A DNA stretch of 40,418 nt from Anaerosomatales bacterium (GTDB taxonomy: Bacteria > Actinomycetota > Coriobacteriia > Anaerosomatales > SLCP01), in the NCBI GenBank assembly GCA_029210645.1, contig JARGFT010000010.1, positions 1 to 40,418 on the forward strand, read 5' to 3'. Positions 1 to 18,794 of this stretch are shown in pieces; the stretch's first letter is position 1; every line of letters starts with the position of its first letter. The translations under genes were made by a program, and so were the position numbers. Below the pieces are notes generated by a model that saw nothing but the letters and a program-made list of their open reading frames with translations, was not told where the DNA came from and did not search any database.

Positions 1-688
1 TGTTGACGCCGCACCTCAGGTCTACTGGGACTTTGCTCCCTGGGACGAACCTGTATCTCTTCGGCTCTGCCGGCTCCCCATTGACCGAGATTCGGTCTCC
101 CTGCTCGAGGTGCGCCTTGAATGCTTCCCCGAGCTTCTTCGTTACCGGACCAGGCATGGGGTTCCGTTGCCTCAGTTTCTTCACCACAACGGCGGTCCCG
201 TAGGGACGGTCACCGAGGGGGCTCTCGGCGGTCTTGGGGACGTCGTCAATCACTATTGTCCAAGCGTCAGGTGAGTTGGGCCGTCTTTCCCAGTCCTCCA
301 GGTCGAACTCCACTCGATACTCGAGATCTTCGCCCAACGGTCTCGTGTAGACAGCCCACCACTTACCGATGCTGGCGCAGGCAGTCTTCATGCCCAGACC
401 AAAATGACCCTTGGTGCCACTCTTGCGATCAATGACCTTGGACATGTCCACACCCAGCCGGACGGCCTCGGCCAGCACATCCTCACTCATGCCGGTACCC
501 GAATCGACGACGCTGATTTCATCCGCCTCGGGAACCACAGTTACTTCGATATCGCTCGCCTGGCCTTCAACCGACGCGTCGAAACTGTTCGCGACAATCT
601 CGGCGATGGCGTCAGCCAGTGTCAGGTTGGTCGCGCCGATCTTCTGCAGAAGCATCGGCGAAGGCGTGTTGTTCACTACCCTGGACAT
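1..688 (-). CDS. GHKL (Hsp90/MutL/histidine-kinase-like) ATPase, partial
   Basis: The open frame begins at an ATG at 688 and continues through the left edge, so only about 229 N-terminal residues are visible and the C-terminus is missing. An AGAGGGG ribosome site lies about 6 nt before this ATG; an in-frame ATG at 715 has no such site. The Bergerat-fold ATP pocket is clear: N-box EIVANSFDA (E30, N34), G1 box DSGTGM (about 62-67), and G2 box GHFGLGMKTA (about 94-103). This arrangement is typical of HATPase_c_3 proteins (MORC, Hsp90-like and MutL-like ATPases), several of which occur in defence or DNA-processing loci. Codon use is less GC-rich than in neighbouring genes, which suggests acquisition by transfer. 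The exact role cannot be assigned without the missing C-terminal part. Confidence 0.8.
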   Translation of the reverse strand, partial: MSRVVNNTPSPMLLQKIGATNLTLADAIAEIVANSFDASVEGQASDIEVTVVPEADEISVVDSGTGMSEDVLAEAVRLGVDMSKVIDRKSGTKGHFGLGMKTACASIGKWWAVYTRPLGEDLEYRVEFDLEDWERRPNSPDAWTIVIDDVPKTAESPLGDRPYGTAVVVKKLRQRNPMPGPVTKKLGEAFKAHLEQGDRISVNGEPAEPKRYRFVPGSKVPVDLRCGVN

Positions 689-778
689 GAATCCCCTCTC
701 AGTCAGTTTCCCCATGACATTGTATCGACTGGACGGGGGGTTTCCTCAAAGTAGCATCAACAGGGTTCGGTGCTCGCT

Positions 779-801
779 TCGTCGGGCCGTTACCCCGACG
801 A
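779..801. repeat. 8-bp inverted repeat between the GHKL ATPase and zinc-ribbon genes
   Basis: TCGTCGGG (779-786) and CCCGACGA (794-801) are perfect inverted copies around a 7-nt loop. It lies in the 211-bp divergent gap and could be an operator or a small hairpin. No T-tract follows, so it is not a convincing terminator. Nothing else recognisable was seen in this gap. Confidence 0.4.
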
Positions 802-899
802 CCAAGGCCAGCGCTCGTCTCCGTGTGCAGCGGGGGCGAGAAGTGGGTATCCCCAAGGCAGTCGGCCCGGAGCCGCCCGGAGTAGCGAAGGAGAACCGC

Positions 900-1118
900 A
901 TGCCGCTGATAGCCTGCCCGCTCTGTGGGTCGATCTGGGAACTCGACGCCGACCAGGCGAAGCGTGTGGACTACGCCTGCGAGGGCTGCGGAACGAACAT
1001 CATGACCCGCGGCGACAAGATGAAGCACTGCAAGAAGTGCAACCTCATCTTCGGAGTCAAGCTTGGCGAGTGCCCCGGATGCGGACGCCCGGCGAGCAGC
1101 TGCGAGTCCTGCGGCTGA
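900..1118 (+). CDS. Small zinc-ribbon protein with five CxxC knuckles
   Basis: A 72-residue protein starting at ATG 900, with a GAAGGAG ribosome site about 7 nt upstream. It has ten cysteines arranged as five CxxC pairs (C6/C9, C27/C30, C44/C47, C58/C61, C68/C71), enough for two complete zinc ribbons plus a spare knuckle. There is no signal peptide or membrane segment. Such miniature multi-ribbon proteins usually act as nucleic-acid or protein adaptors, but this one cannot be assigned to a named family. It is divergent from the GHKL ATPase and 94 bp upstream of the DUF1016 nuclease. Confidence 0.75.
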   Translation: MPLIACPLCGSIWELDADQAKRVDYACEGCGTNIMTRGDKMKHCKKCNLIFGVKLGECPGCGRPASSCESCG

Positions 1119-1212
1119 ATCACGGTAAGGATCCGCTCCGAGACCGTTAAGTCCTCCCTCCTACCCTCGGTTCAGGCGCATCTCGCGCTACCCCGAGACA
1201 GGAGGTGGCCCC

Positions 1213-2229
1213 ATGGCCAGCCGAGACACTGACCCGAGCACCGATGTGGTCAATGATGCTCTGTTCGGCGAGGTTTCCGACCTGATCGACCGCGCACGAG
1301 CCCGTGCCGCGTCGGCGGTCAACACGGAGCTCGTGATGCTGTACTGGAGCATCGGCAAGCGCGTGCGCGAGGAAGTGCTCGGCGGCGAGCGCGCGGAGTA
1401 CGGTTCGCAGGTGGTCAAACGATTGGCGCAGCGATTGACAGAGTGCTACGGCCGCGGCTGGAGCAGGCAGAATATCGAGCGGATGATGAGATTCGCGGAG
1501 TGGATTCCTGAGATCGAGAAATGCTCGCCAGTGGCGGGCAAATTGACCTGGACCAACATCGCAGAGCTCCTCACCATCTCTGAGCAGCCCAAACGCGACT
1601 TCTATCTCGCGATGTGCGCGCACGAGGGATGGACCAAGCGCACGCTTCGCGATCGCGTGTCGAGCAAGCTCTACGAGCGCACGGTTGCCGCGCGTGGTTC
1701 GGCCGAGGGTGTCGAGGCCGACATCGCGGCACTGGCTGTGAAGGGTGCGACGGAGCCGGCGATCATCTTCCGCGATCCGTACGTGCTCGACTTCCTCGAC
1801 CTGCCGCCACAGCACAGCGAGTCGCAACTCGAACAGGCTATCCTCGACGAGGTCGAGCGCTTCATGCTCGAACTCGGTACGGGCTTCACGTTCGTTGCCC
1901 GCCAGAAGCGCGTCATCGTCGACAGCAAGGACTACCATCTCGATCTGCTCTTCTATCACCGGGGGATGCGTTGCCTCGTTGCCATCGAGCTCAAGACCCG
2001 AGACCTCGAACCGGCCGACTTCGGCCAGATGACGCTCTATCTGCGTTGGCTCGATAGGTACGAGCGTCTGCCGGGCGAGGAGCCGCCCGTCGGCATCATC
2101 CTCTGTGCGCGCAAGGTCGCCCAGCAGGTGGAGCTCCTCGGCCTGGACTCCGGTGAAGTGCGCGCCGCCCAGTACCTCACTCACGAAGCGCGCGAGCAGC
2201 TGCAGCGGAGACTGGCGGCGCTGGAGTGA
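1213..2229 (+). CDS. YhcG/DUF1016-family PD-(D/E)XK nuclease
   Basis: 338 residues, preceded by AGGAGG about 8 nt before ATG. The N-terminal DUF1016 helical region (about 20-160), including LYWSIGKR, is followed by a C-terminal PD-(D/E)XK nuclease fold (about 190-325). Its active-site residues are visible as D244 in the DLLFYH strand, E259 and K261 in IELK, and Q272 in FGQM. Length matches the full family. Family members are found in accessory and restriction-modification-linked loci and are presumed DNA nucleases. No methyltransferase or specificity subunit is adjacent, so here it stands alone beside Fic and toxin-antitoxin genes. Family assignment is secure; the biological target is not known. 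Confidence 0.9.
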   Translation: MASRDTDPSTDVVNDALFGEVSDLIDRARARAASAVNTELVMLYWSIGKRVREEVLGGERAEYGSQVVKRLAQRLTECYGRGWSRQNIERMMRFAEWIPEIEKCSPVAGKLTWTNIAELLTISEQPKRDFYLAMCAHEGWTKRTLRDRVSSKLYERTVAARGSAEGVEADIAALAVKGATEPAIIFRDPYVLDFLDLPPQHSESQLEQAILDEVERFMLELGTGFTFVARQKRVIVDSKDYHLDLLFYHRGMRCLVAIELKTRDLEPADFGQMTLYLRWLDRYERLPGEEPPVGIILCARKVAQQVELLGLDSGEVRAAQYLTHEAREQLQRRLAALE

Positions 2230-2261
2230 TCTCGCGCCCAACGCTTGCGTCCTCAGGGGAA

Positions 2262-2300
2262 TAATCTCATAATCTCCTATGAGATAAGTAGTTTAATCTC
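2262..2300. promoter_or_regulatory. Candidate Fic operator: inverted repeat plus three TAATCTC copies
   Basis: In the gap just before fic, ATCTCATA (2264-2271) and TATGAGAT (2278-2285) form a perfect 8-bp inverted repeat with a 6-bp spacer. TAATCTC occurs three times in direct orientation (2262-2268, 2270-2276, 2294-2300), the last abutting the ribosome site. The block is strikingly AT-rich against its surroundings. The downstream Fic protein has a C-terminal winged-helix-like segment, so autoregulation is a reasonable inference. Confidence 0.5.
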
Positions 2301-2314
2301 CTGGAGGCCAACCG

Positions 2315-3478
2315 ATGTATGTGTGGCAGATCACGCCCGAGATCTCGTCCGACCTCGAACGAATCGAGCAGCTGCACCGCGTCCTCGATCGGGGCACGCT
2401 GCCGCGCCGGTGGGCCGGGCGCCTGAGGCGCGAGCTCGAGGCAGAAGCGACAGCGGCCTCGACATCGATGGAAGGCGTGCCTGTCACGGTCGAGGAGGTC
2501 CGCCGCATTCTCGCGGGCGATAGGCCCTCATCGGTGAAGGAGGCCGATGCGCGCTTGGTCGAGGGTTATCGCGACGCGATGTCCTTCGTGCTCAGGCGTG
2601 CGGACGACCCGGAATTCTCGTGGCAGACGGAACTCATCCTCGGCATACACGATCGGGTGATGGCCGGCTCGTACGCTTCCGGGGCCGGAAGGTTTCGCAC
2701 CGGACCGGCCTTCGTGGCGGACGCAGCGACAGGGCTGGTCGTCTTCGAGCCTCCGCCGGCGGAAGCGGTGCCCGGACTGGTGCAGGAGCTTGCGGCATTC
2801 GCGCACTCCGCCGGTGGCGACCTTCCCCCGCCTGTACTTGCGGCGTTGCTGCACGCGCGCCTCGCCGGCGTTCATCCGTTCTCCGACGGCAACGGGCGCA
2901 CTGCTCGCGTGCTGGCGTCGCTTGCGATGTACCGTGGCGGCTTCGCCAGGCCGCAGTTCACGAGCCTGGAGGAGTGGTGGGGTTCCCACAGGCGAGACTA
3001 CTACGATTCGTTTGCGTGCCTCGGCACGTCGTGGGACCCGGACGCGGATGTCACACCGTTCGTTGCCGCCCATGTTCGCGCGCAGCGTCTTCAGGTCGAC
3101 TCGCTCTCGCTCAAAGAGGCGACCGAGCGTGTCCTCTGGGGAATCCTCGAGGACGTGGTGACCGAGGACCTCGGTCTCCCGCCCCGGCTGGCCGATGCCC
3201 TCTACGATGGGTTCTTCGGTCGCGACGTGACCAACCGGTACTACCGTTCACTTGCAGACGTGTCCGTGCCGACCGCCACGTCCGACCTTGGGCGACTCGA
3301 GGCGAGCGGGCTCCTCCGGGCCAAAGGGGCCGGGCGATCGCGTGCCTATGTCGGGAGCGAGCAGCTCGTGGCGGCAGTCGCACGGGCTGCAGAACTCGGC
3401 GACCCCCCGGCATCTGCTCTCGAGACGCAACGGGCGTGGGTGATGGCGCGCCTCGCCGAAAAGGTTCATGGCGGCTGA
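2315..3478 (+). CDS. Fic-family protein AMP-transferase (class II) with C-terminal helix-turn-helix
   Basis: 387 residues; ATG follows GGAGG by about 7 nt. The N-terminal Fic_N-like region contains the inhibitory helix motif S49-T-S-M-E53-G54, matching (S/T)xxxE(G/N). The Fic core has a complete active-site loop HPFSDGNGRTAR at about 187-198 (catalytic H187, D191, R195/R198). Residues about 300-350 resemble a winged helix (SVPTATSDLGRLEASGLL). An intact motif predicts AMPylation or related nucleotidyl transfer onto hydroxyl side chains, held in check by the intramolecular helix. It is downstream of the DUF1016 nuclease but has its own AT-rich promoter region. The substrate is unknown. Confidence 0.92.
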   Translation: MYVWQITPEISSDLERIEQLHRVLDRGTLPRRWAGRLRRELEAEATAASTSMEGVPVTVEEVRRILAGDRPSSVKEADARLVEGYRDAMSFVLRRADDPEFSWQTELILGIHDRVMAGSYASGAGRFRTGPAFVADAATGLVVFEPPPAEAVPGLVQELAAFAHSAGGDLPPPVLAALLHARLAGVHPFSDGNGRTARVLASLAMYRGGFARPQFTSLEEWWGSHRRDYYDSFACLGTSWDPDADVTPFVAAHVRAQRLQVDSLSLKEATERVLWGILEDVVTEDLGLPPRLADALYDGFFGRDVTNRYYRSLADVSVPTATSDLGRLEASGLLRAKGAGRSRAYVGSEQLVAAVARAAELGDPPASALETQRAWVMARLAEKVHGG

Positions 3479-3589
3479 GCAAGCTCTACGGTCGCGCTGG
3501 ACTCAGAGCAACGCCTCGGCCCACCTTGACGCCGCCCCCTCCTCGGCGGTATGAACAAGTGGTATGAACGTCTCGCCAGGGAGGAACTC

Positions 3590-3889
3590 GTGCCCAAGAA
3601 GAAAGTCGCCGTCGCGCTCTCGGAGTGGCTACTCGACGAGCTCGACACGGCGGCGGAGCAGTCGCGGACGAGCCGAAGCGCGCTCGTGGAGGAGGCGGTC
3701 GCTGAGTACGTGGTGCGTCGGCGCACGGGTGAAGACGACGAGCGCTTCCGGCGCGAGGCCACGCTCGCACTTGAGGACATGAGAAGCTTCGCCCGGGAGT
3801 ATCACACCGATCCATTGACCGAGTCAGAGCCGTCTTCACTCGAGAAGCTGCGCGCGCTCCGTGCCGAGGGACGAGGGCTCGAGCGGTGA
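3590..3889 (+). CDS. Ribbon-helix-helix antitoxin (VapB-like)
   Basis: 99 residues if translation starts at GTG 3590, chosen because AGGGAGGA lies 5 nt upstream. An ATG 39 bp further upstream (3551) lacks a ribosome site and would only add a non-conserved tail. The N-terminal segment KKVAVALSEWLLDELD followed by SRSALVEEAVAEYV is a standard RHH (CopG/MetJ-type) DNA-binding fold. The C-terminal half is charged and probably wraps the toxin. Its stop overlaps the start of the PIN gene, as in translationally coupled toxin-antitoxin operons. Such antitoxins repress their own operon. Confidence 0.82.
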   Translation: MPKKKVAVALSEWLLDELDTAAEQSRTSRSALVEEAVAEYVVRRRTGEDDERFRREATLALEDMRSFAREYHTDPLTESEPSSLEKLRALRAEGRGLER

Positions 3890-4290
3890 GCGCACCCGTC
3901 TGCGTACTGGATGCCTCGGTCGGCGTGAAATGGTTCCGTGACGAACCCGGATCCGAGGCGGCGCGGGCGCTCGTCGAGGGGCACATCGCCGGCACTCTGA
4001 CGATCGTCGTCGACACGCTCTTCGGCTACGAGGTGCTGCGCGCCGCATCCCGCGACGCCGAGCCGCGCGATGCCATCCGCATCTGGAGCGACATCGCCCG
4101 GCTCGAGTTGATCACCGTGCCGCTCGGCGAGGAACTCGTGTCAGCGGCTGCGGATGCGCGCGCGGACCTCAGCTGTACGCTCTACGAAGCGTTCGCGGCA
4201 GGACTGGCGACTCTGCTCGAGGCCCCGCTCTACTCGGCAGATGTGCGAGCGCACGGAGCTCACCCGGGTGTTCGCCTGATCACCGCTTGA
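3886..4290 (+). CDS. PIN-domain ribonuclease toxin (VapC-like)
   Basis: 134 residues, starting at GTG within a 4-bp overlap (GTGA) with the RHH antitoxin gene. The PIN fold is recognisable: LDASVGVKWF with D9, FGYEVL with E49, and YSADVR with D119. The position normally holding the third acidic residue (an Asp in the YDA-type helix) reads LYEAFAA, giving E101. These residues usually coordinate Mg2+ for cleavage of tRNA or rRNA. The D-to-E change may lower or alter activity, or be tolerated. The pairing with an RHH protein supports a VapBC-type system. Confidence 0.85.
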   Translation: MSAPVCVLDASVGVKWFRDEPGSEAARALVEGHIAGTLTIVVDTLFGYEVLRAASRDAEPRDAIRIWSDIARLELITVPLGEELVSAAADARADLSCTLYEAFAAGLATLLEAPLYSADVRAHGAHPGVRLITA

Positions 4291-4325
4291 CCCAGAGCGA
4301 GATATATGACTAGAATTCTGGTCAT
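4287..4325 (+). promoter_or_regulatory. Promoter with overlapping 20-bp palindromic operator for phd-relE, apparently leaderless
   Basis: A -35 TTGACC (4287-4292) and -10 TAGAAT (4311-4316) are 18 bp apart. The expected transcription start falls on the A of ATG 4324, implying a leaderless message. The 20-bp sequence ATGACTAGAATTCTGGTCAT (4306-4325) is a palindrome with 9 of 10 pairs matching. It covers the -10 and the start codon, an ideal site for Phd/YefM autorepression. Confidence 0.65.
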
Positions 4326-4599
4326 GTCAGAGACACGTTCACTTGCCGACGTCAAAGCGCACCTCTCCGAGATCGTCGATCTCGTCGAGGGCCAGCACGA
4401 GCGCGTTGTCGTCACCCGGCACGGACGCCCCGCCGCCGTCATCATGAGCGTGCAGGACCTCGAGAGCCTCGAAGAGACGCTCGAGATCCTCTCGGCGCCC
4501 GGCGCTGTCGAGGAGATCCGTTCCGCCGAGCGCGAGATCGACCGCGATCAGTACCTGAGCGCTGCCGAACTGCGGGCGAAGTACCTCGATTCGGAGTAG
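4324..4599 (+). CDS. Phd/YefM-family antitoxin
   Basis: 91 residues from ATG 4324; an ATG at 4306 lies inside the promoter palindrome and is less likely. The N-terminus (SLADVKAHLSEIVDLVEG, then VVVTRHGRPAAVIMS) is the classic Phd/YefM DNA-binding domain. The acidic C-terminal tail would be the intrinsically disordered toxin-binding segment. The gene is 3 bp from the RelE-like toxin. Translation appears leaderless, since no Shine-Dalgarno sequence precedes the start and the -10 box sits 7 nt upstream. Confidence 0.88.
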   Translation: MSETRSLADVKAHLSEIVDLVEGQHERVVVTRHGRPAAVIMSVQDLESLEETLEILSAPGAVEEIRSAEREIDRDQYLSAAELRAKYLDSE

Positions 4600-4602
4600 C
4601 TG

Positions 4603-4872
4603 ATGGCGCCGTACAGGCTGCTTGTCGCCGCGTCAGCCGAGCGCATGCTTCGCCGGCTTCCCGGGGCCGCCGCCTCGGCGATGGTCGAGTTCATGACCGG
4701 CCCGCTCGTGGAGAACCCGATGAGGGTGGCAAAGCCGCTGATGCTCGATCTCGAAGGCTATCGGTGTGCCCGGCGCGGACCCTACCGTGTCATCTACAGG
4801 TTCGATGAGGCCGAGCGCTCCGTCCGCGTCGTCCGGGTCGATCACCGCGCCGACGTGTACCGCACGCGCTGA
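4603..4872 (+). CDS. RelE/ParE-family toxin
   Basis: 89 residues, starting 3 bp after the antitoxin stop, with CGGAG as ribosome site inside the antitoxin's last codons. It has the compact RelE fold: helical N-terminus with RMLRRLP, then a strand region RCARRGPYRVIYRFDE and a C-terminal DHRADVYR. The basic pattern GxYRVIY and the terminal HRxDVYR are typical of RelE mRNA interferases, which cleave mRNA in the ribosomal A-site. ParE-type gyrase poisoning is an alternative. The full-length frame is intact and it is paired with Phd, so a functional type II module is likely. Confidence 0.88.
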   Translation: MAPYRLLVAASAERMLRRLPGAAASAMVEFMTGPLVENPMRVAKPLMLDLEGYRCARRGPYRVIYRFDEAERSVRVVRVDHRADVYRTR

Positions 4873-4895
4873 GAACTTCCGAGGGCACGCCGCCG

Positions 4896-6038
4896 CTACA
4901 CCAGGCCCGCTCTTCTGCGTCCCGCCCACGTGATCAGCCAGTACACAGCCAGACCGCTGACATACCCGATCGCCATGTTCGTGAGTAGCGAGACGGCCAC
5001 CGTCGCCGCCAGCGCCAACATCTCGACGCCGATCTCCACGTCCTTGGCGAACTTGATCAGCTCGATGCCCACCATGAACATCATCGCGCCGATGATGGCC
5101 TGCGGGAACGCCACGAACACCCCTGCGATCGACGCGGCCAGGAACAGTCCCATCGCGATCTCGAGCGTGCCCTCGATGAGGTTGGCGCCGGCCGTCCGCG
5201 CGCCGTAGTAGTACTGCCCGGCCAGTCCGCCGGCACCGTGGCACATCGGCATGCCACCGAGAAAGGGCGCCGTGCTGTTCATGATGCCGTGACTCCACGA
5301 CAGAGTGCGCACGCTCACGTTCTCGTCGGTCCAGTACCGCTTGATGAGCGAGGACGTCGAGATCACCGCATTGGTGGCGGTGAGCGGGACCTGGGCGAAG
5401 CCGGCCAGCAGCAGCGTCTGCCACACCTGCCCGGCGCTGAAGGTGGTGAAGTGCGGCAGCCGCAGCCCGGGGGATGCGATTCCGGTGAAGTCTCCCTTGA
5501 AGAGCATGATCCCCAGGCCGAGGAGCACGAGCACGATGGCCGCAGGCGCGTAGCGGTTCTGCCTGAGTGTCAGCACGATGACTACGCCGAGTATCGCGAA
5601 CGCCCACGAGGTGGAGCCGAGGCGCAGGGCTTCGATCGCAAGCAGGATGCCGAGCGTGACCTGGATGCCGCGCACCACGGAGTGGGGTGTGATCCGCGCG
5701 ATCCAGCCGATGAGCCCGGTCGCGGCCAGCAACAGCCACACGAGACCCATCCCGAATCCCGAGGCGTACACCATCGACGGCGACCACTGCTGGGCGATGG
5801 CGACCACCGCGAGCGCCTTCATCGGCTCGATCGGCATCGGCAGGCGGAACACGAGCCCCGCGATGATGTTGGCAAGCCCCATCATGACGAGGAAGCCTGC
5901 AGGGTCTAGTCCGCACACCGCGATGTAGCCGATGGCAAGCGGCAGCAGCGTACCGAAGTCGCCCATCGAGCCCGCGAGCTCGTTCAGCCCGAGCTTGATG
6001 GGACGTCTTTGGTTGATGCTCTCGACCGGTCCCGACAT
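4896..6038 (-). CDS. MOT1-family molybdate/sulfate transporter
   Basis: 380 residues with about ten hydrophobic membrane segments. Signature stretches of the MOT1 branch (related to SulP permeases) are present: LNELAGSMGDFGTLLPLAIG near the N-terminus, PMPIEPMKALAVVAIA at about 65-80, and GGMPMCHGAGGLAGQYYYGART around 260. In characterised eukaryotic MOT1 proteins these mark high-affinity molybdate uptake; bacterial members are usually annotated putative sulfate/molybdate transporters. No STAS domain is seen. There are no molybdenum-cofactor genes adjacent, so the substrate is inferred from family only. It converges on relE (23-bp gap). No strong ribosome site is visible; a G-rich tract lies about 13 nt upstream. 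Confidence 0.88.
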   Translation of the reverse strand: MSGPVESINQRRPIKLGLNELAGSMGDFGTLLPLAIGYIAVCGLDPAGFLVMMGLANIIAGLVFRLPMPIEPMKALAVVAIAQQWSPSMVYASGFGMGLVWLLLAATGLIGWIARITPHSVVRGIQVTLGILLAIEALRLGSTSWAFAILGVVIVLTLRQNRYAPAAIVLVLLGLGIMLFKGDFTGIASPGLRLPHFTTFSAGQVWQTLLLAGFAQVPLTATNAVISTSSLIKRYWTDENVSVRTLSWSHGIMNSTAPFLGGMPMCHGAGGLAGQYYYGARTAGANLIEGTLEIAMGLFLAASIAGVFVAFPQAIIGAMMFMVGIELIKFAKDVEIGVEMLALAATVAVSLLTNMAIGYVSGLAVYWLITWAGRRRAGLV

Positions 6039-6176
6039 CGGCTAGGACGTACCCCCCCAACGGCGATCGTGTGCCACAAGGATACAAAAGGGACGGGCAC
6101 GAGCGATGATACGCCTCGAGGGGGGCGCACGAAGGTGCAGCGTGCCGCCCGGTGTGGGCGTCGTCGCTCTACCGCT

Positions 6177-6809
6177 CTACACCAGGCCGGTCGCGCGCCA
6201 CACTCCCGCTGCGATGCCGAGGGAGGGCAGGTACCAGGTGAATGTCCCGATGAAATGCTCGACGGTGTCCTTGCGCATGAGCGTCCCCAGCGTGGTACCC
6301 GAGTCGAACGTCATCACGACTACCCATACGACCAGGGCGAGCACGGCGGTCAGCACTCCGACCTGGACGGCACCGGCTACGCTGAACCCTTCGCGGACCC
6401 TGCTCGTGACCGAGACCAACATCGGCAGAGCGAGGAGTACCACGAGCGCGACGAAGAGCACGCTGATCCCCCCGAAGTTCTCGGGAGCCAGCACGAGGCT
6501 CAGGGGCGGGAGCAGGAGCATCATGGCGATAAAGACGATCCCGACTCCCGTGACCGCTACGAGCGGTGCGAGCACGGCACTGCGGATGGCGACGGTCCGC
6601 GCTCCGTCCCTCGAGTCGATGGCGAAGACGGCCGCAGGGCCGAGCAGGAAGGGGATCACCGTCAGCGCCAGGTAGCCGGGGGTGAAGGCATCGATTGACA
6701 GCCGGTCGATGATGAACAGCGCCGGCACGAGGAACAGCGCCGTGAACGCGTAGGTCAAGCCGTACGTATCCAGTACGCGCGGTGCGGTGTGCTCGGTCTG
6801 GGGATCCAC
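6177..6809 (-). CDS. Predicted six-span membrane protein of unknown function
   Basis: 210 residues when started at GTG 6809, which has GGGAGGAGA about 6 nt upstream. Longer in-frame starts exist (to 6899) but would add a hydrophilic tail overlapping the next gene. About six hydrophobic spans (for example YAFTALFLVPALFII, LALTVIPFLLGPAAVFAI, VLFVALVVLLALPMLV) fill the protein. No catalytic or binding motif was recognised. It lies downstream of another small membrane protein on the same strand, with a 12-bp palindrome between them. Confidence 0.65.
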   Translation of the reverse strand: MDPQTEHTAPRVLDTYGLTYAFTALFLVPALFIIDRLSIDAFTPGYLALTVIPFLLGPAAVFAIDSRDGARTVAIRSAVLAPLVAVTGVGIVFIAMMLLLPPLSLVLAPENFGGISVLFVALVVLLALPMLVSVTSRVREGFSVAGAVQVGVLTAVLALVVWVVVMTFDSGTTLGTLMRKDTVEHFIGTFTWYLPSLGIAAGVWRATGLV

Positions 6810-6873
6810 TCTGTCTCCTCCCGGCGGCATACGGGCCACACGCACCGTAGGCCTTCGGACAGCAGGGAGTACA

Positions 6874-6885
6874 TGACCTAGGTCA
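6874..6885. promoter_or_regulatory. Perfect 12-bp palindrome TGACCTAGGTCA
   Basis: The palindrome overlaps the stop codon of the 6883-7272 gene and lies 65 bp upstream of the 6809 start. Read on the minus strand it begins TTGACC, so it can also act as a -35 box. The TTGAC...GTCA pattern resembles sites of CRP/FNR-superfamily regulators, but this is only resemblance. Confidence 0.4.
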
Positions 6886-7272
6886 AGCGGAGAATCCAAT
6901 GCGTTCCTGCCGGGCGGACCTCACCAGCTGCGCCGCCCATCCGGTGCAGGCGATCAGCAGGAGCAGCAGCACGGGCGGTCCGAGAAGTTCGCTGAGCCCG
7001 AACCCCGCCACAACCGCGAGAAAGCTGCCCAGCGCGGTAAGCAGGATCATCTCGAGGCGCTCCGAGCGGAGGATGGCGGTCGAGAAGTCGGCCGCCAGCA
7101 CGAGCAGCGCGAATGCCAGCAGCAGATGGAATACGGAGTTCAGGTTCAGCGCGACCCCACCGGGCTCGGTCAGGAACTCGCGCACGAGGAGGAAGGTGAG
7201 CCCCGCTGCGGGCGCGGCAACGCACGCCACGCACACGAACCGCACGAGCTCCAGGAACCGTTTCCAGCCCAT
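6883..7272 (-). CDS. Small predicted membrane protein of unknown function
   Basis: 129 residues with four hydrophobic segments: about 10-32, 45-65, 74-92 and 95-113. ATG 7272 has GGAGGCGCAGG as ribosome site. No motif links it to a known family. The order on the minus strand is this gene then the 6177-6809 membrane protein, so the two may be co-transcribed, although the palindrome between them could give the second its own control. Confidence 0.65.
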   Translation of the reverse strand: MGWKRFLELVRFVCVACVAAPAAGLTFLLVREFLTEPGGVALNLNSVFHLLLAFALLVLAADFSTAILRSERLEMILLTALGSFLAVVAGFGLSELLGPPVLLLLLIACTGWAAQLVRSARQERIGFSA

Positions 7273-7296
7273 CCTGCGCCTCCTCGGTCGGATTGT

Positions 7297-7333
7297 TGCC
7301 CGGGCCTCCGGGCAGCGGTAAGGGTATACCCTT
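7297..7333. promoter_or_regulatory. Hairpin and 14-bp palindrome in a divergent intergenic region
   Basis: TGCCCGG (7297-7303) and CCGGGCA (7308-7314) form a 7-bp inverted repeat. Just downstream, AAGGGTATACCCTT (7320-7333) is a perfect 14-bp palindrome containing a TATACC -10-like core, 59 bp before the DUF6941 gene. The second is a plausible promoter/operator. No good -35 lies at the normal distance. Confidence 0.4.
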
Positions 7334-7391
7334 TCTGTCGGGCGGATGATTCCGGTCGCGGCCTATGGCCGTCTCAGGAGGGGAGCACGCG

Positions 7392-7811
7392 ATGAACGTC
7401 GATCTCGCACTTCTGACGGACTACGCGGCCGTCACCAACGAGGGGAAACTCATCGCGGCCGGCATCTTCGACCGGCTGCGCCCCCCACAGCTGCCATGGC
7501 ACCACCCCACGATGTGCATCGCCTTGCGCGTGCACTTCCACCCGGGTGAGGAGGGCGGTCACAAGATCGGCATCCGCCTTGTCGATCCGGACGGCACGCA
7601 GATCGTGTCCCTCGATGGCGATGCGACCGTGGCTGCGATGGATCCGGTCGAGGGAGGGACTGCCCAGCTCGTGCTCAACCTGAACAACGTGCCGTTCAAG
7701 ATGAAGGGTCGCCACTCCTTCGACGTCTTCCTCGACGGTCGTTACGAGCACAGCATCGCTCTCGTGCTCGATGAGCGGCCCGCCTCGCCGGGCGGCACGG
7801 CAGGAGGGTAG
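7392..7811 (+). CDS. DUF6941 family protein
   Basis: 139 residues from ATG 7392, which has AGGAGGGG about 10 nt upstream; an in-frame ATG at 7365 lies before that site and is less likely. The opening NVDLALLTDYAAVTNEGKLIAAGIFDRL is the hallmark of the DUF6941 family, common in actinobacteria and other bacteria, whose function is unknown. The rest is predicted beta-rich with no catalytic motif or export signal, so it is probably a cytoplasmic beta-sandwich. It is followed after 7 bp by a lipoprotein gene, suggesting co-transcription. Confidence 0.8.
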   Translation: MNVDLALLTDYAAVTNEGKLIAAGIFDRLRPPQLPWHHPTMCIALRVHFHPGEEGGHKIGIRLVDPDGTQIVSLDGDATVAAMDPVEGGTAQLVLNLNNVPFKMKGRHSFDVFLDGRYEHSIALVLDERPASPGGTAGG

Positions 7812-7818
7812 GGGAGCC

Positions 7819-8271
7819 ATGTTCCCTCTCGCAGCCGCTCGCACCCCGGTGGTGCAGCATGCTCGCCGCGTCGCCGTACTGTTCGTCCTGCTCCTGGCCC
7901 TGATGCTCGCCGCATGCGCCTCGCCCCGGCCGCCCGATGCCGAGCCGACCATCCGCGGCGTCATCGTGGACATCACACCCGGCCCTGACGGGACCGGGTT
8001 TGCGCTCATCGTCTGGCACGAGTCGCTCGGCGAGGTCTACGACCTCGACTCGATCGCCGCGACTATCGACGAGGAGACCGAGCTGTTCGACCGCGAGGGC
8101 AACGTCATCGACTTCGCTGACCTCGCGGTGCGCGACGTGGTCGATGCCTGGTTCAGCGGAGCGATCGCCGAGTCCTACCCGCCGCAGGGTACCGCTGATG
8201 CGGTGCGCGTCATCGGCGAGTTCGACGAGATCCGGCCTCTGCCGATCCCGCGCGGCCTCATCGAACCGTAA
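7819..8271 (+). CDS. Small lipoprotein of unknown function
   Basis: 150 residues from ATG 7819. The ribosome site is the GGGGAG just after the previous stop. Residues 17-33 form a lipoprotein signal ending in LMLAAC, with C33 as the predicted lipidation site. The mature part ([22 protein letters not shown]..., [20 protein letters not shown]) resembles small OB-like or DUF3221-type extracytoplasmic domains that begin with a G-x-I/V-V pattern, but I cannot name the family with certainty. It lies 7 bp after the DUF6941 gene and 26 bp before the DUF255 gene. Confidence 0.75.
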
Positions 8272-8297
8272 GCCCACGGACCCCCGGAGGAATGACC

Positions 8298-10133
8298 ATG
8301 CCAAACCGCCTCGCACACGAGACCAGCCCCTATCTGCTGCAGCACGCGGACAATCCCGTGGACTGGTATCCCTGGGGTCCGGAGGCGTTCGAACGGGCGC
8401 GTGCCGAGGACAAGCCGGTGTTCCTGAGCGTCGGCTACTCGGCGTGCCACTGGTGTCACGTCATGGAGCAGGAGAGCTTCGAAGACGAGGCCACCGCGCT
8501 CCTGCTCAACGCCAACTTCGTGCCGGTGAAGGTCGACCGCGAGGAGCGTCCCGACGTCGACTCGGTGTACATGGATGCCGTCAACGCCGTCGCCGGTCGC
8601 GGCGGGTGGCCGATGAGCGTGTTCCTCACCCCGGCAGGCGAGCCGTTCTACGCCGGCACGTACTTCCCGGCGGTCGGCCGGCAGGGGATGCCCTCGTTCA
8701 AGGAGGCCCTCGATCAGCTTGCAGGCCTGTGGGAGACCCAGCGCGACGAGGTGCTCTCTGCAGCCGCTCGCCTGACGGCCGACATCCGCTCGGCGCGCGA
8801 TGCGCTTGCGTCTTCCGGTGGCGGTGAGCTCCCGGGAGCCGAGACGCTCCACGACGCAGCCACGCGCCTGGCCTACGAGTTCGACGAGGACGACGGCGGC
8901 TGGGGCGGCCCGCCGAAGTTCCCGCAGCCGATGGTGGTCGAGTTCCTCCTGCGCCGCTACCGGCAGACCGACGACGGGCGGCTCATGCGCATGGTCTCCG
9001 AGACGCTCGACGCGATGGCCGCCGGCGGCCTGTACGACCAGCTCGGCGGCGGGTTTCACCGCTACGCCACCGACCTGCACTGGCGCATCCCGCACTTCGA
9101 GAAGATGCTCACCGACAACGCGCAGCTCGCGCGGGTCTATCTTGCCGGCTGGGAGCTCACCGGGCTCGCGCACTACCGGCGCGTGGCGACCGACACGCTC
9201 GACTACCTGCTTCGCGAGATGGCCGACCCGGCCGGTGGCTTCTACTCGGCCCAGGACGCCGACACCGAGGGCGAGGAGGGACGCTTCTTCGTATGGACTC
9301 CGCAACAGGTGGCCGCCGCGCTCGAGGGCACGCCCGAGGCCGCCGACGGCGGTGTGGAGCTCTTGTGCTCGGCGTACGGCGTGACTCCCGGGGGCAACTT
9401 CGAGGGCAGCACCGTGCTGCACCTCCCGCGGCCCGTTTCCGAGCTGGCTTCCGAGACCGGCATCCCCGTCGATGACCTCGAGGACCGGCTTGCCGCGATG
9501 CGCCGCACGCTCTTCGAGGCGCGCGAGTCACGGGTGCGCCCGGCGCGCGACGAGAAGGTACTCGCCGGGTGGAACGGGCTTGCGCTCGGGGCGTTCGCGA
9601 CCGCCGCCCGCGTGCTCGACCGCTCCGACTATCGCCAGGCCGCCGAACGCACCGCGCACTTCCTCCTCGGCGAGATGATGACCGCCGACGGCAGGATGTA
9701 CCGCAACTGGAAAGACGGGCGGGCCACCCTCAACGGCTATCTCGAGGACTACGCCAACGTCGCCGAGGGCCTGCTCGAGCTCTTCGAGACCACACGCGAC
9801 GAGCGCTGGCTTGCCGGAGCCACGGAGCTCGCCGGATCGATCGTCGAACACTTCTCCGACCCGGCGGGCGGCTTCTTCGACACGAGCGACGATCACGAGC
9901 AGCTCATCGTCCGCCCGAAGGTCGTGCAGGACGGCGCGGTGCCTTCCGGCGGAGCGATGGCCACCGGCGTCCTGTTGCGTCTGGCCGTGCGCACCCGCGA
10001 CGCGCGCTACTCCGACCCGGCCGCCGCCGCACTGCGCTCGGTCGGCCCGGTGCTCTCCCGTGCCCCGCTCGGCTTCGCGAAGTGGCTCACCGTGTTCGCG
10101 GGCTTCCTCGAGGAGCGCGAGCAGATGGAGTGA
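8298..10133 (+). CDS. DUF255 thioredoxin-fold / YyaL-family protein (SPATA20-like)
   Basis: 611 residues from ATG 8298, 7 nt after GGAGG; an ATG two codons earlier (8292) overlaps that ribosome site too closely. The N-terminal DUF255 domain is thioredoxin-like: [21 protein letters not shown], then SACHWCHVM with a CxxC (about C50/C53), and [10 protein letters not shown]. The rest (about 190-600) is an alpha/alpha six-barrel similar to N-acylglucosamine 2-epimerases and glycosidase folds, including [13 protein letters not shown] and the [13 protein letters not shown] region. Length is about 10 percent shorter than typical members of around 680. Members are widespread, but the reaction is not established. 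Confidence 0.93.
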
Positions 10134-10157
10134 GGCGGGAACGCCCTGCTCCTCGGG

Positions 10158-10163
10158 TACACT
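10158..10163 (+). promoter_or_regulatory. -10 box TACACT placing transcription start on the cls ATG
   Basis: TACACT is followed by 6 nt and then ATG 10170. No Shine-Dalgarno sequence precedes the ATG. The expected transcript would therefore begin at or next to the start codon. The -35 region is weak. Confidence 0.45.
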
Positions 10164-10169
10164 CCTGAC

Positions 10170-11606
10170 ATGCTCACAGAGGTCATCACCGCGGTCATCG
10201 CGGTCTACGTCATCATCGTCGTCATCATCCTCATCTACGAGGACCGCGACCCTTCCACAACGCTCGCCTGGCTCCTCATCCTGCTCTTCCTGCCGGTCGT
10301 GGGCATCCCGCTCTACTTCTTCACGGGTCGCATGTGGCCGTGGCAGCGCCACCGCAAGCGCATCGATGCGCTGAACGCCATCGAAGCCCACCGCGTGCTG
10401 CCGTCGGTCTACGGCGAGCACCAGCTCTGGGCCAACGAGCGCCGTGCCCGCTACGACGGGACCGACGTCGCCAAGATCATCAACATGATCGAGCGGCAGA
10501 GCGACGGACATCCGCTGCCCGCCGACACCGTGGAGATCTTCACCTCCGGCGCGGAGAAGTTCGACCGCCTCATCGCCGACATCGAGGCGGCGACCGACCA
10601 CATCCACCTGCAGTACTTCATCTGGGAGCGCGACGAGCTCACCGCGCGGGTGACCGAGGTGCTGCGCCGCAAGGTGGCCGAGGGCGTGAGCGTGCGGATC
10701 ATGTACGACTTCGCCGGATCGTTCAATCACCGCAAAGACGAGCTGAAATCCCTCGAGCGGGCCGGTGCTCAGGTCGAGGCCGATCTCACCAAGTTCAACG
10801 AGCTCAACTACCGCAACCACCTCAAGATCGCGGTCATCGACGCCCGGGTCGGTTACACCGGCGGCATGAACATGGGGCAGGAGTACATCGACGGCGGCTC
10901 CCGCTTCGACCTCTGGCGTGACACGCACCTGCGCGTCAGCGGACCCTTCGTCGCCGAGTTGCAGCGTCTCTTCGTGGAGCGGTGGTTCGCCAACCGCAAC
11001 GAGAACCTGTGGGTCGAGCGCTACTTCCCCGTGCTCGCGTCGGCCGACCCCTCCTCGGCCATCATGCTCCAGCTCGTCCACTCCAGCGTCGGAGACCAGT
11101 GGGAGGCGGTCAAGCAGACCTTCCTGCACGCGGTGGCGAGCGCTGATCGCTGCGTGCGCATCCAGTCGCCCTACTTCGTGCCGGACCAGTCCTTCTACGA
11201 CGCGCTGCTCACCGCCGGGCTCGGCGGGGTCGACGTGCGCTTCATGATGACCGGCGTGCCGGACAAGAAGATCGCGTTTTGGGCCGCGCGCACCTACTTC
11301 CCCAAGGTCATCGCCGCCGGCGTGCGCGTCTACCAATACACCGCCGGGTTCTTCCACGCCAAGTCGCTCGCCGTGGACTCGATGTTCTGCGCGCTGGGCA
11401 CCGCGAACATCGACGTGCGCTCCTTCAGCCTGCACGACGAGCTCATGGTCTTCATCTACGACGAGGAGGTCACCCGCCAGGTCGAGTTGCACTTCGAGAC
11501 CGACCTCGCGTACTGCCGGGAGGTCACCGCCGAGGAGCTCGAGCGCGACGGCCGCCTCGTGCGCTTCCGCAACTCGGTCATGCGCCTGGCGTCCCGCGCG
11601 CTATAG
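10170..11606 (+). CDS. cls: Cardiolipin synthase (phospholipase D superfamily)
   Basis: 478 residues. Two N-terminal membrane spans (about 4-23 and 32-52) are followed by two phospholipase D domains. Both HKD catalytic motifs are intact: H217-L-K219 with D224, and H396-A-K398 with D403, each followed by the GG.N or G.AN.D companion motif (GGMNMG, GTANIDVRSF). The enzyme condenses two phosphatidylglycerols to cardiolipin plus glycerol at the inner membrane. The ATG has no ribosome site but sits 6 nt from a TACACT -10 box, suggesting a leaderless mRNA. The gene stands alone. Confidence 0.95.
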   Translation: MLTEVITAVIAVYVIIVVIILIYEDRDPSTTLAWLLILLFLPVVGIPLYFFTGRMWPWQRHRKRIDALNAIEAHRVLPSVYGEHQLWANERRARYDGTDVAKIINMIERQSDGHPLPADTVEIFTSGAEKFDRLIADIEAATDHIHLQYFIWERDELTARVTEVLRRKVAEGVSVRIMYDFAGSFNHRKDELKSLERAGAQVEADLTKFNELNYRNHLKIAVIDARVGYTGGMNMGQEYIDGGSRFDLWRDTHLRVSGPFVAELQRLFVERWFANRNENLWVERYFPVLASADPSSAIMLQLVHSSVGDQWEAVKQTFLHAVASADRCVRIQSPYFVPDQSFYDALLTAGLGGVDVRFMMTGVPDKKIAFWAARTYFPKVIAAGVRVYQYTAGFFHAKSLAVDSMFCALGTANIDVRSFSLHDELMVFIYDEEVTRQVELHFETDLAYCREVTAEELERDGRLVRFRNSVMRLASRAL

Positions 11607-11675
11607 TCCTTCCGCGGGTCCGGGATTCTGCAAGAAACTCCGTGCGATGTGACGGCGGACACCAACTCCGCCCGT

Positions 11676-11704
11676 TTGGAGTGCCGATAGTGCGGGTGTA
11701 GGAT
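11676..11704 (+). promoter_or_regulatory. Promoter upstream of the secreted Ala/Lys/Glu-rich gene
   Basis: A -35 TTGGAG (11676-11681) and -10 TAGGAT (11699-11704) are separated by exactly 17 bp, predicting a start near 11711 and a leader of about 45 nt before ATG 11755. The -10 element matches the TAnnnT form seen elsewhere in this window. Confidence 0.55.
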
Positions 11705-11754
11705 GGGACTGTAGATTTGTTGGCGCGCACTCGCGCAGGTGAAAGGACGGGATC

Positions 11755-12431
11755 ATGCGGAGGATCGTCGCACTGGCAACGCTCATCGCTCTGGCGGCCA
11801 CACTGCTGGTGCCGGTCGCCGCACTCGCCAAGGGCGGCCCGCCCGCTGGCAAGGGTTCCGGTTTCACGCCGCCCGGTCAGGCCAAGAAGGTCGCGGCACC
11901 GGCTGAAGAGCCGGTGGTGGCCGCTGAGGTCGTAGAGCCCGAGGGCGATGCCCCGGAGCCGGACGGCACGCAGGCGCGCAAGGCCGAGAAGGCCGCCGCG
12001 AAGGCCGAGAAGGCCGCGGAGAAGGCCGAGTGGAAGGCCGTGCACAAGCCCGCCGGGACGGTCGCCGCCTCGGAGGAGGAGAGCGAGACGCCCGACGGCG
12101 ACGACGCGGACATGAGCCCGAGGAGCAGGGCAAGCTCACCGGTATCGCCAACGCGCTCTCGCGCATCATGGCCAACATCGAGCGTGCCGAGGCGCGGGTC
12201 GAGGCCGGTCAGAAGTCACACGTTCCGCAGGGCCTGCTGAACGTGCTTGCCAAGTTCCTCGGCTGGCTCGGGATCGATGCCGAGCCCGATATTGACGCCG
12301 ACGATCCGGGTCTGGACGATCCCGGCCTCACGGATCCGGGCAACGGCTCGGATGAGGAAACGTCCACCCCGCTGCCCGATGAAGGTTCAGAGGAAGACAC
12401 CGTAACCGTCGAACCAGAGCTCGAAGAGTAG
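11755..12431 (+). pseudogene. Secreted Ala/Lys/Glu-rich, acidic-tailed protein, interrupted by an apparent -1 frameshift
   Basis: From ATG 11755 (GAAAGGACGGG upstream) the protein starts with a signal peptide (about 1-25, ALA cleavage), a Gly/Pro stretch (KGSGFTPPGQAKK), and an Ala/Lys/Glu-rich probable coiled coil (about 75-100). At about 12112 the sensible coding shifts by -1: frame one degenerates into Ser/Arg-rich noise ending at 12240. The adjacent frame continues as EPEEQGKLTGIANALSRIMANIE and a Pro/Asp-rich acidic tail ending TVEPELEE at 12431. Losing one base between GAC and ATGAG (an original GAC-GAT-GAG) would explain it. No slippery heptamer is seen, so this is a sequencing indel or a genuine mutation rather than programmed frameshifting. 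Function unknown; probably extracytoplasmic. Confidence 0.6.
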
Positions 12432-12457
12432 TCGCAGCACCTTCCTGTGAACCACCG

Positions 12458-12479
12458 AAGGGCCCCGAAAGGGGCCCTT
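12458..12479 (+). terminator. Strong hairpin terminator
   Basis: AAGGGCCCC (12458-12466), GAAA tetraloop, GGGGCCCTT (12471-12479) form a perfect 9-bp stem, followed by CCTC. It lies between convergent genes (end 12431, and lrp ending at 12532) and could serve both. Confidence 0.8.
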
Positions 12480-12531
12480 CCTCGTGTGCCGGCACAGGTG
12501 CATGCATGCCGGCGAGACAGGGGCCGTGCCG

Positions 12532-12972
12532 CTACGCTCCCCCGAAGTCGATGCGCCGCCACGTGACCGGCGAGGAGAGCACGATCGAGGTGTTCGTCTG
12601 GCCGTAGGGGAGCAGTTTGACGATGACGCGCTCCAGGTGTGAGACGGACTCGACCGCCACCTTCATGATGAAGCCCTCGCCGCCGGTGACGTGGTGGAAC
12701 TCGAGCACCTCGGGGATCTCCCGCACGAGATCTGAGAGTTGCCGCCCGAGTTCGTGGGGCGAGGTCAGCCGGACGAACGCCACCATGCCGCGCCCGGCCT
12801 TCTCCAGGTCGATGGCTGCGTGGTACCCGGTGATGATGCCGTCGGTCTCCAGCCGCCGCACGCGCTCGGCGACCGCCGGGGCGCTGAGCCCTACCTCCCG
12901 GCCGAGCTCGGCGTAGGAGATGCGCGCGTCCTCCTGCAGGAGTCTGAGGATGCGGGTGTTGATCTCGTCCAC
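12532..12972 (-). CDS. Lrp/AsnC-family transcriptional regulator
   Basis: 146 residues from GTG 12972, with AAAGGAAAG as ribosome site. The N-terminal winged helix (DEINTRILRLLQEDARISYAELGREVGLSAPAVAERVRRLETDGII) is followed by a RAM/AsnC ligand-binding domain (about 65-140), including HHVTGGEGFIMKVAV. These proteins form octamers or dimers of dimers and respond to amino acids. It is divergent from an EamA-type exporter across an AT-rich 140-bp gap, so regulation of that exporter and of itself is the natural inference, as for other Lrp/exporter pairs. Confidence 0.93.
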   Translation of the reverse strand: MDEINTRILRLLQEDARISYAELGREVGLSAPAVAERVRRLETDGIITGYHAAIDLEKAGRGMVAFVRLTSPHELGRQLSDLVREIPEVLEFHHVTGGEGFIMKVAVESVSHLERVIVKLLPYGQTNTSIVLSSPVTWRRIDFGGA

Positions 12973-13112
12973 GGTACTTTCCTTTCGAAGGCATTACAAC
13001 ACGAGATACATTGATAGCATAGCACTCGACCCTTGCGACCTTCGGTTACCTCTCCATATCCCGGGCTTACCCCTCTACACTGTGCACACCACACACGGAG
13101 GAGGTGACGGGC

Positions 13113-14078: not shown

Positions 14079-14129
14079 TAGAATGGTGCGTCGCGTCGCA
14101 CCGTCCTGCAGCACGAATGGAGTCTGCCG

Positions 14130-14750: not shown

Positions 14751-14845
14751 CCGCCGAACCGGACGCCCGTCCGACCCGTCCGCGTGCACAGGCTCTTCCA
14801 CACCGCGCCGGGCTGCGCTACGATGCGTGCGACAACTGCATAGAT

Positions 14846-14969
14846 GCGTCCCCAGGTGCCCGCGAACCGCGGGAGAATAGGGAAGCCGGTGAGAACCCGG
14901 CACGGACCCGCCACTGTGAAGTGAGGCTGGAAAGCAGCCTCCGAAGTCAGGAGACCTGCCGGGGGACGC
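14846..14969 (+). ncRNA. Cobalamin (adenosylcobalamin) riboswitch aptamer
   Basis: The aptamer is bounded by a P1 helix GCGTCCCC (14846-14853) / GGGGACGC (14962-14969). It contains the conserved core GGGAAGCCGGTGAGAA, then GGCACGGACCCGCCACTGTGA, and the B12 box AGTCAGGAGACCTGCC near 14945-14960. This is the standard arrangement controlling B12 transport and synthesis genes. It sits in the 387-bp gap before btuF, which otherwise holds only the terminator at 15068-15101 and the btuF ribosome site. Confidence 0.95.
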
Positions 14970-15067
14970 GCGACGCGGCCTTCGAGGTAACGAGGCTTGA
15001 TCGCGACGCCGGACCCGCCATCCGTACCAGCACCAGACCCGGCGCACGACCTCTCTCGCTCACACCG

Positions 15068-15101: not shown

Positions 15102-15137
15102 GCGTGTCGGGGGCCGCACGACACACGAGGAGGCTCC

Positions 15138-16100: not shown

Positions 16101-16116
16101 CTGCCGAGGAGGCTGC

Positions 16117-18789: not shown

Positions 18790-18794
18790 GGCAG

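What the first reader, a model, noticed from the sequence alone, without database searches (positions are those of the whole stretch)
1..4872. Left-edge accessory island: GHKL ATPase, zinc ribbons, YhcG nuclease, Fic and two toxin-antitoxin pairs
Five modules associated with conflict, DNA processing or stress are clustered, with the GHKL ATPase in a different codon style. GHKL ATPases, orphan PD-(D/E)XK nucleases and zinc-ribbon adaptors can be parts of antiphage systems, so the part beyond the left edge may complete one.
Basis: inference. Interest (0 to 1): 0.55.

Follow-up and report, generated by a model that had tools for sequence, protein, structure and literature searches.

The report
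Shuffled defence hotspot, truncated MORC-like ATPase
The left end of this contig is a patchwork of independent defence and toxin-antitoxin genes that differ between close relatives, including the first half of a MORC-like ATPase whose usual helicase-nuclease partners would lie beyond the contig end, and a nuclease gene with its own unusual promoter.

Summary
The genes are there and intact, except that the contig end cuts the GHKL gene. The left edge of the window is the contig end. The block is not one system. It is a variable hotspot of separate modules: YhcG, Fic, RHH-PIN and Phd-ParE. Same-genus and more distant relatives carry these in different order or lack some.

The GHKL fragment (2-688, minus strand) belongs to the MORC/paraMORC radiation of restriction systems described in 2008. 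Four full-length relatives, in Haladaptatus, Methanomassiliicoccus, Sarcina and a Bacteroidaceae MAG, are each followed by a ~220-aa protein and a PLD-SNF2 helicase. These partners would lie beyond the edge and were not found elsewhere in the assembly.

The unexpected part is the YhcG promoter (1123-1167): 7-bp repeats at 11- or 22-bp period, then 10 bp, then TAnnnT. In other genomes of the order the same element precedes comEA, yraN-yifB, secA and integron integrase genes. Columns not used in the search agree. The regulator and the function are inferred, and in this genome YhcG is the only gene seen with the element.

The parts
2..688 (-). N-terminal 229 aa of a MORC/paraMORC-type GHKL ATPase, cut by the contig end; ATP-binding motifs present (E30/N34/D37, D62/G66, G97/G99, G164-T165 invariant in 5 of 5 sequences)
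   Evidence: Pfam; alignment; PDB best hits human MORC4/MORC3; 43-50% identity by tblastn to four full-length relatives
900..1118 (+). 72-aa double zinc-ribbon-like protein, divergent from GHKL; present only in this genome among 41 (one partial weak hit in G038)
1123..1167 (+). YhcG promoter box: CGGTAAG (1123-1129), degenerate middle repeat (1134-1140), CGTTAAG (1145-1151), 10 bp, TACCCT -10-like element (1162-1167)
1213..2229 (+). YhcG, DUF1016_N plus PD-(D/E)XK nuclease domain
   Evidence: conserved in G001, G002, G003, G007, G034 with its leader
2263..2302 (+). AATCTCCT-type repeats with an inverted repeat just upstream of Fic (possible operator); a similar element lies upstream of YhcG in G002
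   Evidence: sequence
2315..3478 (+). Fic protein; reads HPFSDGNGRTAR and an N-terminal STSMEG (class II inhibitory-helix pattern, motif recalled)
   Evidence: absent at this place in G002, 93.6% identical copy in G001
3551..3889 (+). RHH (CopG-type) antitoxin
   Evidence: (conserved with PIN in G002, G003, G034)
3886..4290 (+). PIN-domain toxin (VapC-like), overlapping the antitoxin by 4 bases
4306..4599 (+). Phd/YefM antitoxin
4603..4872 (+). ParE-type toxin

Best explanation
Window 1-4872 is the edge of a defence and toxin-antitoxin hotspot built of self-contained modules that are gained, lost and reordered between relatives. The GHKL gene is the start of a separate restriction-type system. 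I infer that its ATPase, with a ParB-HTH-like DNA-binding adaptor and a PLD-nuclease/SNF2 helicase encoded beyond the edge, uses ATP to clamp or loop DNA so that the helicase-nuclease can translocate along and cut DNA it reads as foreign. YhcG is a stand-alone nuclease gene that carries its own promoter, built like an OmpR/PhoB-type response-regulator site. Fic, RHH-PIN and Phd-ParE are further independent units. Shown: gene content, presence and absence, module boundaries, neighbours of GHKL in relatives, and conservation of the promoter. Inferred: all activities, the gene content beyond the edge, and the identity of the regulator.
For: Shuffling: in G002:C45 YhcG runs straight into RHH-PIN-Phd-ParE with no Fic (about 19 bp between), and 3520-6200 is 98.3% identical; in G003:C183 the order is Phd-ParE, YhcG, a Schlafen/AlbA_2 gene, RHH-PIN; G007:C8 has Phd-ParE then YhcG; G001:C119 has a YhcG end followed by Fic; G034, in another family, has YhcG (88.9%) and RHH-PIN. 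The conserved YhcG unit starts at 1123/1124 in G002, G003 and G007 and ends at 2237 in G002 and G003. GHKL system: relatives in a Haladaptatus plasmid (50%), Sarcina (45%), a Bacteroidaceae MAG (44%) and Methanomassiliicoccus (43%); all four are followed by a 213-227-aa protein and a 1079-1156-aa PLD/SNF2 helicase. The ~220-aa protein model has a ParB/KorB/Noc-like HTH region (pLDDT 79.4; the 24 best PDB matches are all ParB, Noc or KorB chains, E 0.09-1.6). Iyer et al. 2008 describe MORC operons with SFII helicases, some with an N-terminal HKD domain (PMC2292703, passages). YhcG promoter.
Against: The partners of GHKL were not found in the assembly (the ~220-aa search had no positive control), so the system may be incomplete in this cell. 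The GHKL half shown ends before the S5 domain. The MORC-specific S5 motif has Q for R in 4 of 4 relatives, so 'MORC' in the strict sense is not met. Foldseek E-values are weak. No expression or phage data exist.
Confidence: 0.83

Rival explanations
1. One integrated antiphage system: GHKL ATPase, zinc-ribbon adaptor and YhcG nuclease (with Fic/TA as effectors) work together.
For: They are adjacent; in G038:C4 another GHKL gene also lies close to a YhcG gene.
Against: YhcG occurs in 3 of 3 same-genus genomes without GHKL or zinc ribbon. GHKL relatives carry a PLD-SNF2 helicase and a ~220-aa protein instead, and no YhcG was recognised beside them. The G038 GHKL is only 25% identical.
Confidence: 0.04
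2. The GHKL fragment is a decayed remnant, or the contig end is a chimera of another organism's DNA.
For: Lowest GC and GC3 of the region; absent in all close relatives; partners not found in the genome.
Against: 229 codons open without a stop, all ATP-binding motifs intact; ordinary horizontal transfer explains composition and patchiness; contamination of the bin is given as 1.29%.
Confidence: 0.12
3. The modules are gene cassettes of an integron array.
For: Sharp, shared module boundaries and reordering; integron integrases do exist in this order.
Against: No attC-like pair of RYYYAAC and GTTRRRY boxes with complementary ends 45-150 bases apart on either strand of 1-5000; each module seems to have its own leader, unlike typical promoterless cassettes.
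Confidence: 0.03
4. The block is ordinary core genome of the genus.
For: YhcG is in 3 of 3 same-genus genomes; RHH-PIN and Phd-ParE are in G002 and G003.
Against: GHKL, zinc ribbon and Fic are not shared by all, and the order differs.
Confidence: 0.01

Closest known systems
Prokaryotic MORC/paraMORC restriction-modification operons (Iyer, Abhiman, Aravind 2008, PMC2292703; passages read)
   Same: GHKL ATPase with intact ATP motifs; relatives carry an S5-like domain, a neighbouring SFII helicase with an HKD/PLD domain and, in the Sarcina and Bacteroidaceae loci, a cytosine methylase (Sarcina also Vsr and MutH-fold nucleases)
   Different: Only the ATPase half is in the window; relatives have Q instead of R in the MORC-specific motif; the ~220-aa ParB-HTH-like partner is not mentioned in the passages I read
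MZA antiphage system (MzaB)
   Same: GHKL ATPase of related type (PADLOC E 8e-9)
   Different: 40.6 bits against a curated cut-off of 850; relatives carry none of the Mza partners that I recall
YhcG / DUF1016 PD-(D/E)XK nucleases (PADLOC candidate PDC-S02; PMC1189080 predicts a YraN-like Holliday-junction-resolvase fold, passages)
   Same: Both domains, full length
   Different: Carries a conserved promoter box shared in the order with DNA-uptake and integron integrase genes
OmpR/PhoB-family response-regulator sites (PHO boxes; PhoP of M. tuberculosis, PMC4832192, passages)
   Same: 7-bp motifs with 4-bp spacers in tandem, three in a row in many sites
   Different: Motif YGGTAAG differs from the sites quoted there; regulator unknown

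Membership tests
MORC/paraMORC restriction system with HKD-SFII helicase | GHKL domain with all ATP-binding motifs | tested here: met
   Pfam; invariant motif residues in 5 of 5 sequences; PDB best hits MORC4/MORC3
MORC/paraMORC restriction system with HKD-SFII helicase | S5 domain after the GHKL domain | not testable with these tools
   Beyond the contig end; in relatives Morc6_S5 is above cut-off in 2 of 3 tested (Haladaptatus, Sarcina) and just below in Methanomassiliicoccus
MORC sensu stricto | GhXhhpXXRhl motif in the S5 domain | tested here: not met
   Only in relatives: 4 of 4 have Q in place of R; the window ends before it. Filed as MORC-like, not MORC
MORC/paraMORC restriction system with HKD-SFII helicase | neighbouring SFII helicase with HKD/PLD domain | tested here: inconclusive
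   Present after GHKL in 4 of 4 relatives (helicase domains confirmed by Pfam in three; the fourth by alignment); not found in this assembly, where that side is missing
MZA system | MzaB equivalog score | tested here: not met
   40.6 bits against 850
YhcG/DUF1016 nuclease | DUF1016_N plus YhcG_C domains above cut-off | tested here: met
   145.3 and 158.3 bits
Class II Fic AMP transferase | Fic domain with HPFxDGNGR motif and N-terminal inhibitory [ST]xxxE[GN] | tested here: met
   Pfam; HPFSDGNGR and STSMEG read in the translation; motif definitions recalled
VapBC | NCBIfam VapC equivalog | tested here: not met
   16.2 bits against 80; it is a RHH-PIN pair by Pfam
Integron cassette array | attC sites between genes | tested here: not met
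   None found on either strand of 1-5000 with a simple two-box scan
OmpR/PhoB-type regulated promoter | tandem 7-bp motifs with 4-bp spacers near the -10 | tested here: met
   comparison with PMC4832192
OmpR/PhoB-type regulated promoter | binding by a response regulator | not tested
   needs protein; the regulator was not identified

The most novel reading that the evidence does not exclude
In this bacterial order the mobile YhcG nuclease is expressed from an undescribed OmpR/PhoB-type promoter class (YGGTAAG repeats at 11-bp period, 10 bp, TAnnnT). The class is shared with comEA, yraN-yifB, secA, integron integrase and AbiE genes, so one signal would switch on DNA uptake, cassette integration and a Holliday-junction-resolvase-like nuclease. 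That would place YhcG in DNA acquisition and recombination rather than only in phage defence, and could help explain why its neighbourhood is so often reshuffled.
Probability: 0.35. Interest if true: 0.6.

Novelty: new member of a known kind. Interest (0 to 1): 0.4.

Why it matters
The GHKL part extends a known family of restriction-type systems to a new bacterial lineage and, from four relatives, defines a compact three-gene core (ATPase, ParB-HTH-like adaptor, PLD-SNF2 helicase) that can be tested in laboratory strains. The YhcG promoter is the more useful lead: YhcG is a widespread nuclease family of unknown function, and a promoter shared with DNA-uptake and integron integrase genes gives a concrete hypothesis about when it acts.

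Tried and rejected
Integron cassettes: suggested by the sharp module borders; rejected for lack of attC boxes. One linked GHKL-YhcG system: rejected by presence and absence. Viral origin: no GHKL relative in viral contigs and only two weak phage records; no YhcG relative in viral contigs by the close-relative scan. A first scan of named genomes with the GHKL fragment alone found nothing; the scan with a two-sequence alignment found the relatives. Joining the contig to another: the left flank of the hotspot in G002 (2,736 bases with NUDIX and HNH genes) has no match in this genome, and no contig repeats the first bases. A structure of YhcG from its single sequence was useless (mean pLDDT 42.1). 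YhcG has no PDB relative by sequence. A PhoB-like phosphate regulon was considered for the promoter box; no phosphate gene was recognised behind the boxes. LytTR-type sites (AgrA/ComE) were considered because of the 22-bp period; the third repeat at 11 bp favours OmpR/PhoB type. Rows dropped before counts: of 23 YhcG loci (22 plus L043), L102 and L106 (no usable start) were left out of the 21-leader counts; of 52 box hits, 19 form one coding-sequence family (translated in three of 13 checked by the script, which looked on one strand only) and were set aside by sequence; of the 24 other hits 21 were fetched, three not; L105, the four period-11 leaders and the leaders without a clear box were left out of the 11 boxes scored.
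Full report
What is there. The window is the first 40,418 bases of an 83,205-base contig of a 1.98-Mb genome in 46 contigs, so the left edge is a contig end. The GHKL gene reads leftwards off the contig; 229 codons from its likely start at 688 are held, with every GHKL ATP-binding motif intact. The zinc-ribbon ORF has only sub-threshold domain hits and no relative in plasmids; among 41 genomes it is found in this one, plus a weak 36-residue match in G038.

Composition. GHKL has GC 0.594 and GC3 0.725; nine Pfam-confirmed genes of the rest of the window have GC3 0.839-0.917. Fic, RHH, PIN, Phd and YhcG lie between (0.784-0.814).

The island is a shuffled hotspot. Three same-genus genomes were available. 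None has GHKL or the zinc ribbon; all three have YhcG. In G002 the segment from RHH through the transporter gene is 98.3% identical to the window, YhcG is 89.1% identical at DNA level, and Fic is missing with about 19 bases between YhcG and the RHH-PIN unit. In G003 the order is Phd-ParE, YhcG, a Schlafen/AlbA_2 ATPase, RHH-PIN, and then the thioredoxin-domain gene that lies at 8292 in the window. In G007 (same family) Phd-ParE precedes a YhcG with an internal gap. In G034 (another family) NUDIX-like and HNH genes lead into a YhcG fragment, a YhcG 88.9% identical to ours, and RHH-PIN; G002 has the same kind of NUDIX and HNH genes on that side. G001 has a contig with the end of YhcG followed by a Fic 93.6% identical to ours. 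The conserved YhcG unit starts at window 1123/1124 in G002, G003 and G007 and ends at 2237 in G002 and G003. No attC-like sites were found, so this is not an integron array; what moves the modules is not known.

The GHKL gene. Searches in 60 relatives gave a best outside hit of 36% identity, and a 396-genome sample of the phylum gave no other genome at E<=1e-15. Closer relatives are scattered: a Haladaptatus plasmid (50%), Sarcina sp. DSM 11001 (45%), a Bacteroidaceae MAG (44%), a Methanomassiliicoccus MAG (43%) and a contig-end fragment in an Erysipelotrichaceae MAG (14 loci in all, the other ten at 29-37% over short stretches). The four full-length ones are each followed by a 213-227-aa protein and a 1079-1156-aa helicase (alignments); PLD, SNF2 and helicase C domains were found in the three tested by Pfam. 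Sarcina adds Vsr, a MutH-fold protein and a cytosine methylase before GHKL and a 191-aa protein after the helicase; the Bacteroidaceae locus has a methylase before it and a 190-aa protein after; the archaeal ones have no methylase adjacent. In Haladaptatus a DrmA-like helicase and a DUF1998 gene follow. Two Roseobacteraceae plasmids have 28% identical GHKL genes, one of them directly behind Vsr, methylase and GIY-YIG genes. The window fragment alone finds human MORC4 and MORC3 first in the PDB. Iyer et al. 2008 (PMC2292703, passages) describe this kind: GHKL-S5 ATPases in restriction operons with SFII helicases, a few with an N-terminal HKD domain, with methylases and Vsr nucleases, widely and sporadically distributed. 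Their MORC-specific motif has Q for R in all four relatives, so I file the gene as MORC-like. Folding the ~220-aa partner from three sequences gave an all-helical model (pLDDT 79.4) that over about 120 residues resembles the DNA-binding region of ParB, Noc and KorB (probabilities near 1 for the top hits but E-values of 0.09 and above, so suggestive only). The partners were sought in this genome and not found (the search for the ~220-aa protein had no positive control). I expect them beyond the edge.

The YhcG promoter. The region from 1123 to 1167 reads CGGTAAG, 15 bases, CGTTAAG, 10 bases, TACCCT. In 21 YhcG leaders of the order, two CGGTAAG-like heptamers at period 11 or 22 occur beyond dinucleotide-shuffled expectation in 14 (p<=0.05 each), and periods 11 and 22 stand out among 8-33. 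These leaders are related to each other, so the count is not of independent events. The pattern occurs once in the 40-kb window. A pattern scan of 69 genomes of the order (one mismatch) gave 52 hits against 6 for the reversed pattern. Nineteen are one coding family and were set aside; nine are YhcG leaders; 24 are elsewhere. Of these 24, 21 were fetched. Behind them lie secA (4), comEA (3: two by domain models, one by tblastn), a yraN-like gene (by eye) followed by yifB (1), integron integrase at 476 and 479 bits against a cut-off of 265 (2), AbiEi (1) and a NYN gene (1); the other nine have no gene that I could name, one of them being inside a gene and one facing no gene. Features not used in the search support that these are promoters: the last T of TAnnnT in 20 of 21, and a third repeat midway with G in 18 and G in 19 of 21. 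A weight matrix made only from these 21 non-YhcG sites gives the window's YhcG leader 31.6 bits; the next best place in 453,741 bases of this genome has 15.0 and the best control 15.7; 17 of 21 YhcG leaders score at p<=0.05. Part of that is built in, because the pattern came from YhcG leaders; using only the columns that the pattern did not fix, 11 of 11 aligned YhcG boxes lie in the top 2.5% of random window 45-mers (window's own: 0.7%). Tandem 7-bp motifs with 4-bp spacers are the mark of OmpR/PhoB-type regulators (PMC4832192, passages). Against a common programme in this very genome: the pattern found only the YhcG site in it, and nothing else clear in the 23% scanned by matrix. YhcG's nuclease domain has been predicted to be YraN-like, that is Holliday-junction-resolvase-like (PMC1189080, passages), which fits the company it keeps here. 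A text search for DUF1016 with competence and promoter motif found no paper, and one for integron integrase, comEA, regulon and direct repeat listed none that, by title and abstract start, describes such a regulon (ten of 23 listed).

Verdict. An accessory hotspot of ordinary module types, correctly spotted; the GHKL half-gene does point to a known kind of system beyond the edge; the modules are not one machine; the promoter of YhcG is the one lead that goes beyond what I could find described.

Noticed in passing
window 1123-1167: Conserved promoter box of YhcG, shared in other genomes of the order with secA, comEA, yraN-yifB and integron integrase genes.
   Followed up: partly
window 1166-1197: Possible stem-loop (CTCGG...CCGAG) directly before the YhcG ribosome-binding site; the stem sequence differs but seems kept in G034. 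Not folded or tested.
   Followed up: no
window 2263-2302: Repeated AATCTCCT elements with an inverted repeat before Fic; a similar element stands about 70-110 bases upstream of the YhcG box in G002, without Fic there.
   Followed up: no
L075 (G000:C8) 3022-18986: Elsewhere in this genome: a serine recombinase, SNF2 helicase, DNA methylase, ResIII-type helicase, restriction-like proteins and a nucleotidyltransferase of CD-NTase appearance, read from the translations only.
   Followed up: no
L151 1583-2557, L155 1560-2534 (minus): Integron integrases (TIGR02249 far above cut-off) in two genomes of this order, each with the promoter box just upstream.
   Followed up: partly
L067 15872-20666: In the Haladaptatus plasmid the MORC-like operon is followed by a DrmA-like helicase and a DUF1998 gene, so two restriction-type systems may be stacked.
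   Followed up: no
L052, L059, L060, L063: Several partial or interrupted YhcG copies, some next to intact ones, in relatives, as if the gene often duplicates and decays.
   Followed up: no
L071 4474-12448 (G038:C4): Another GHKL gene with Vsr-like and cytosine-methylase-like neighbours lies next to a YhcG gene in G038; read from translations, not domain-tested.
   Followed up: no
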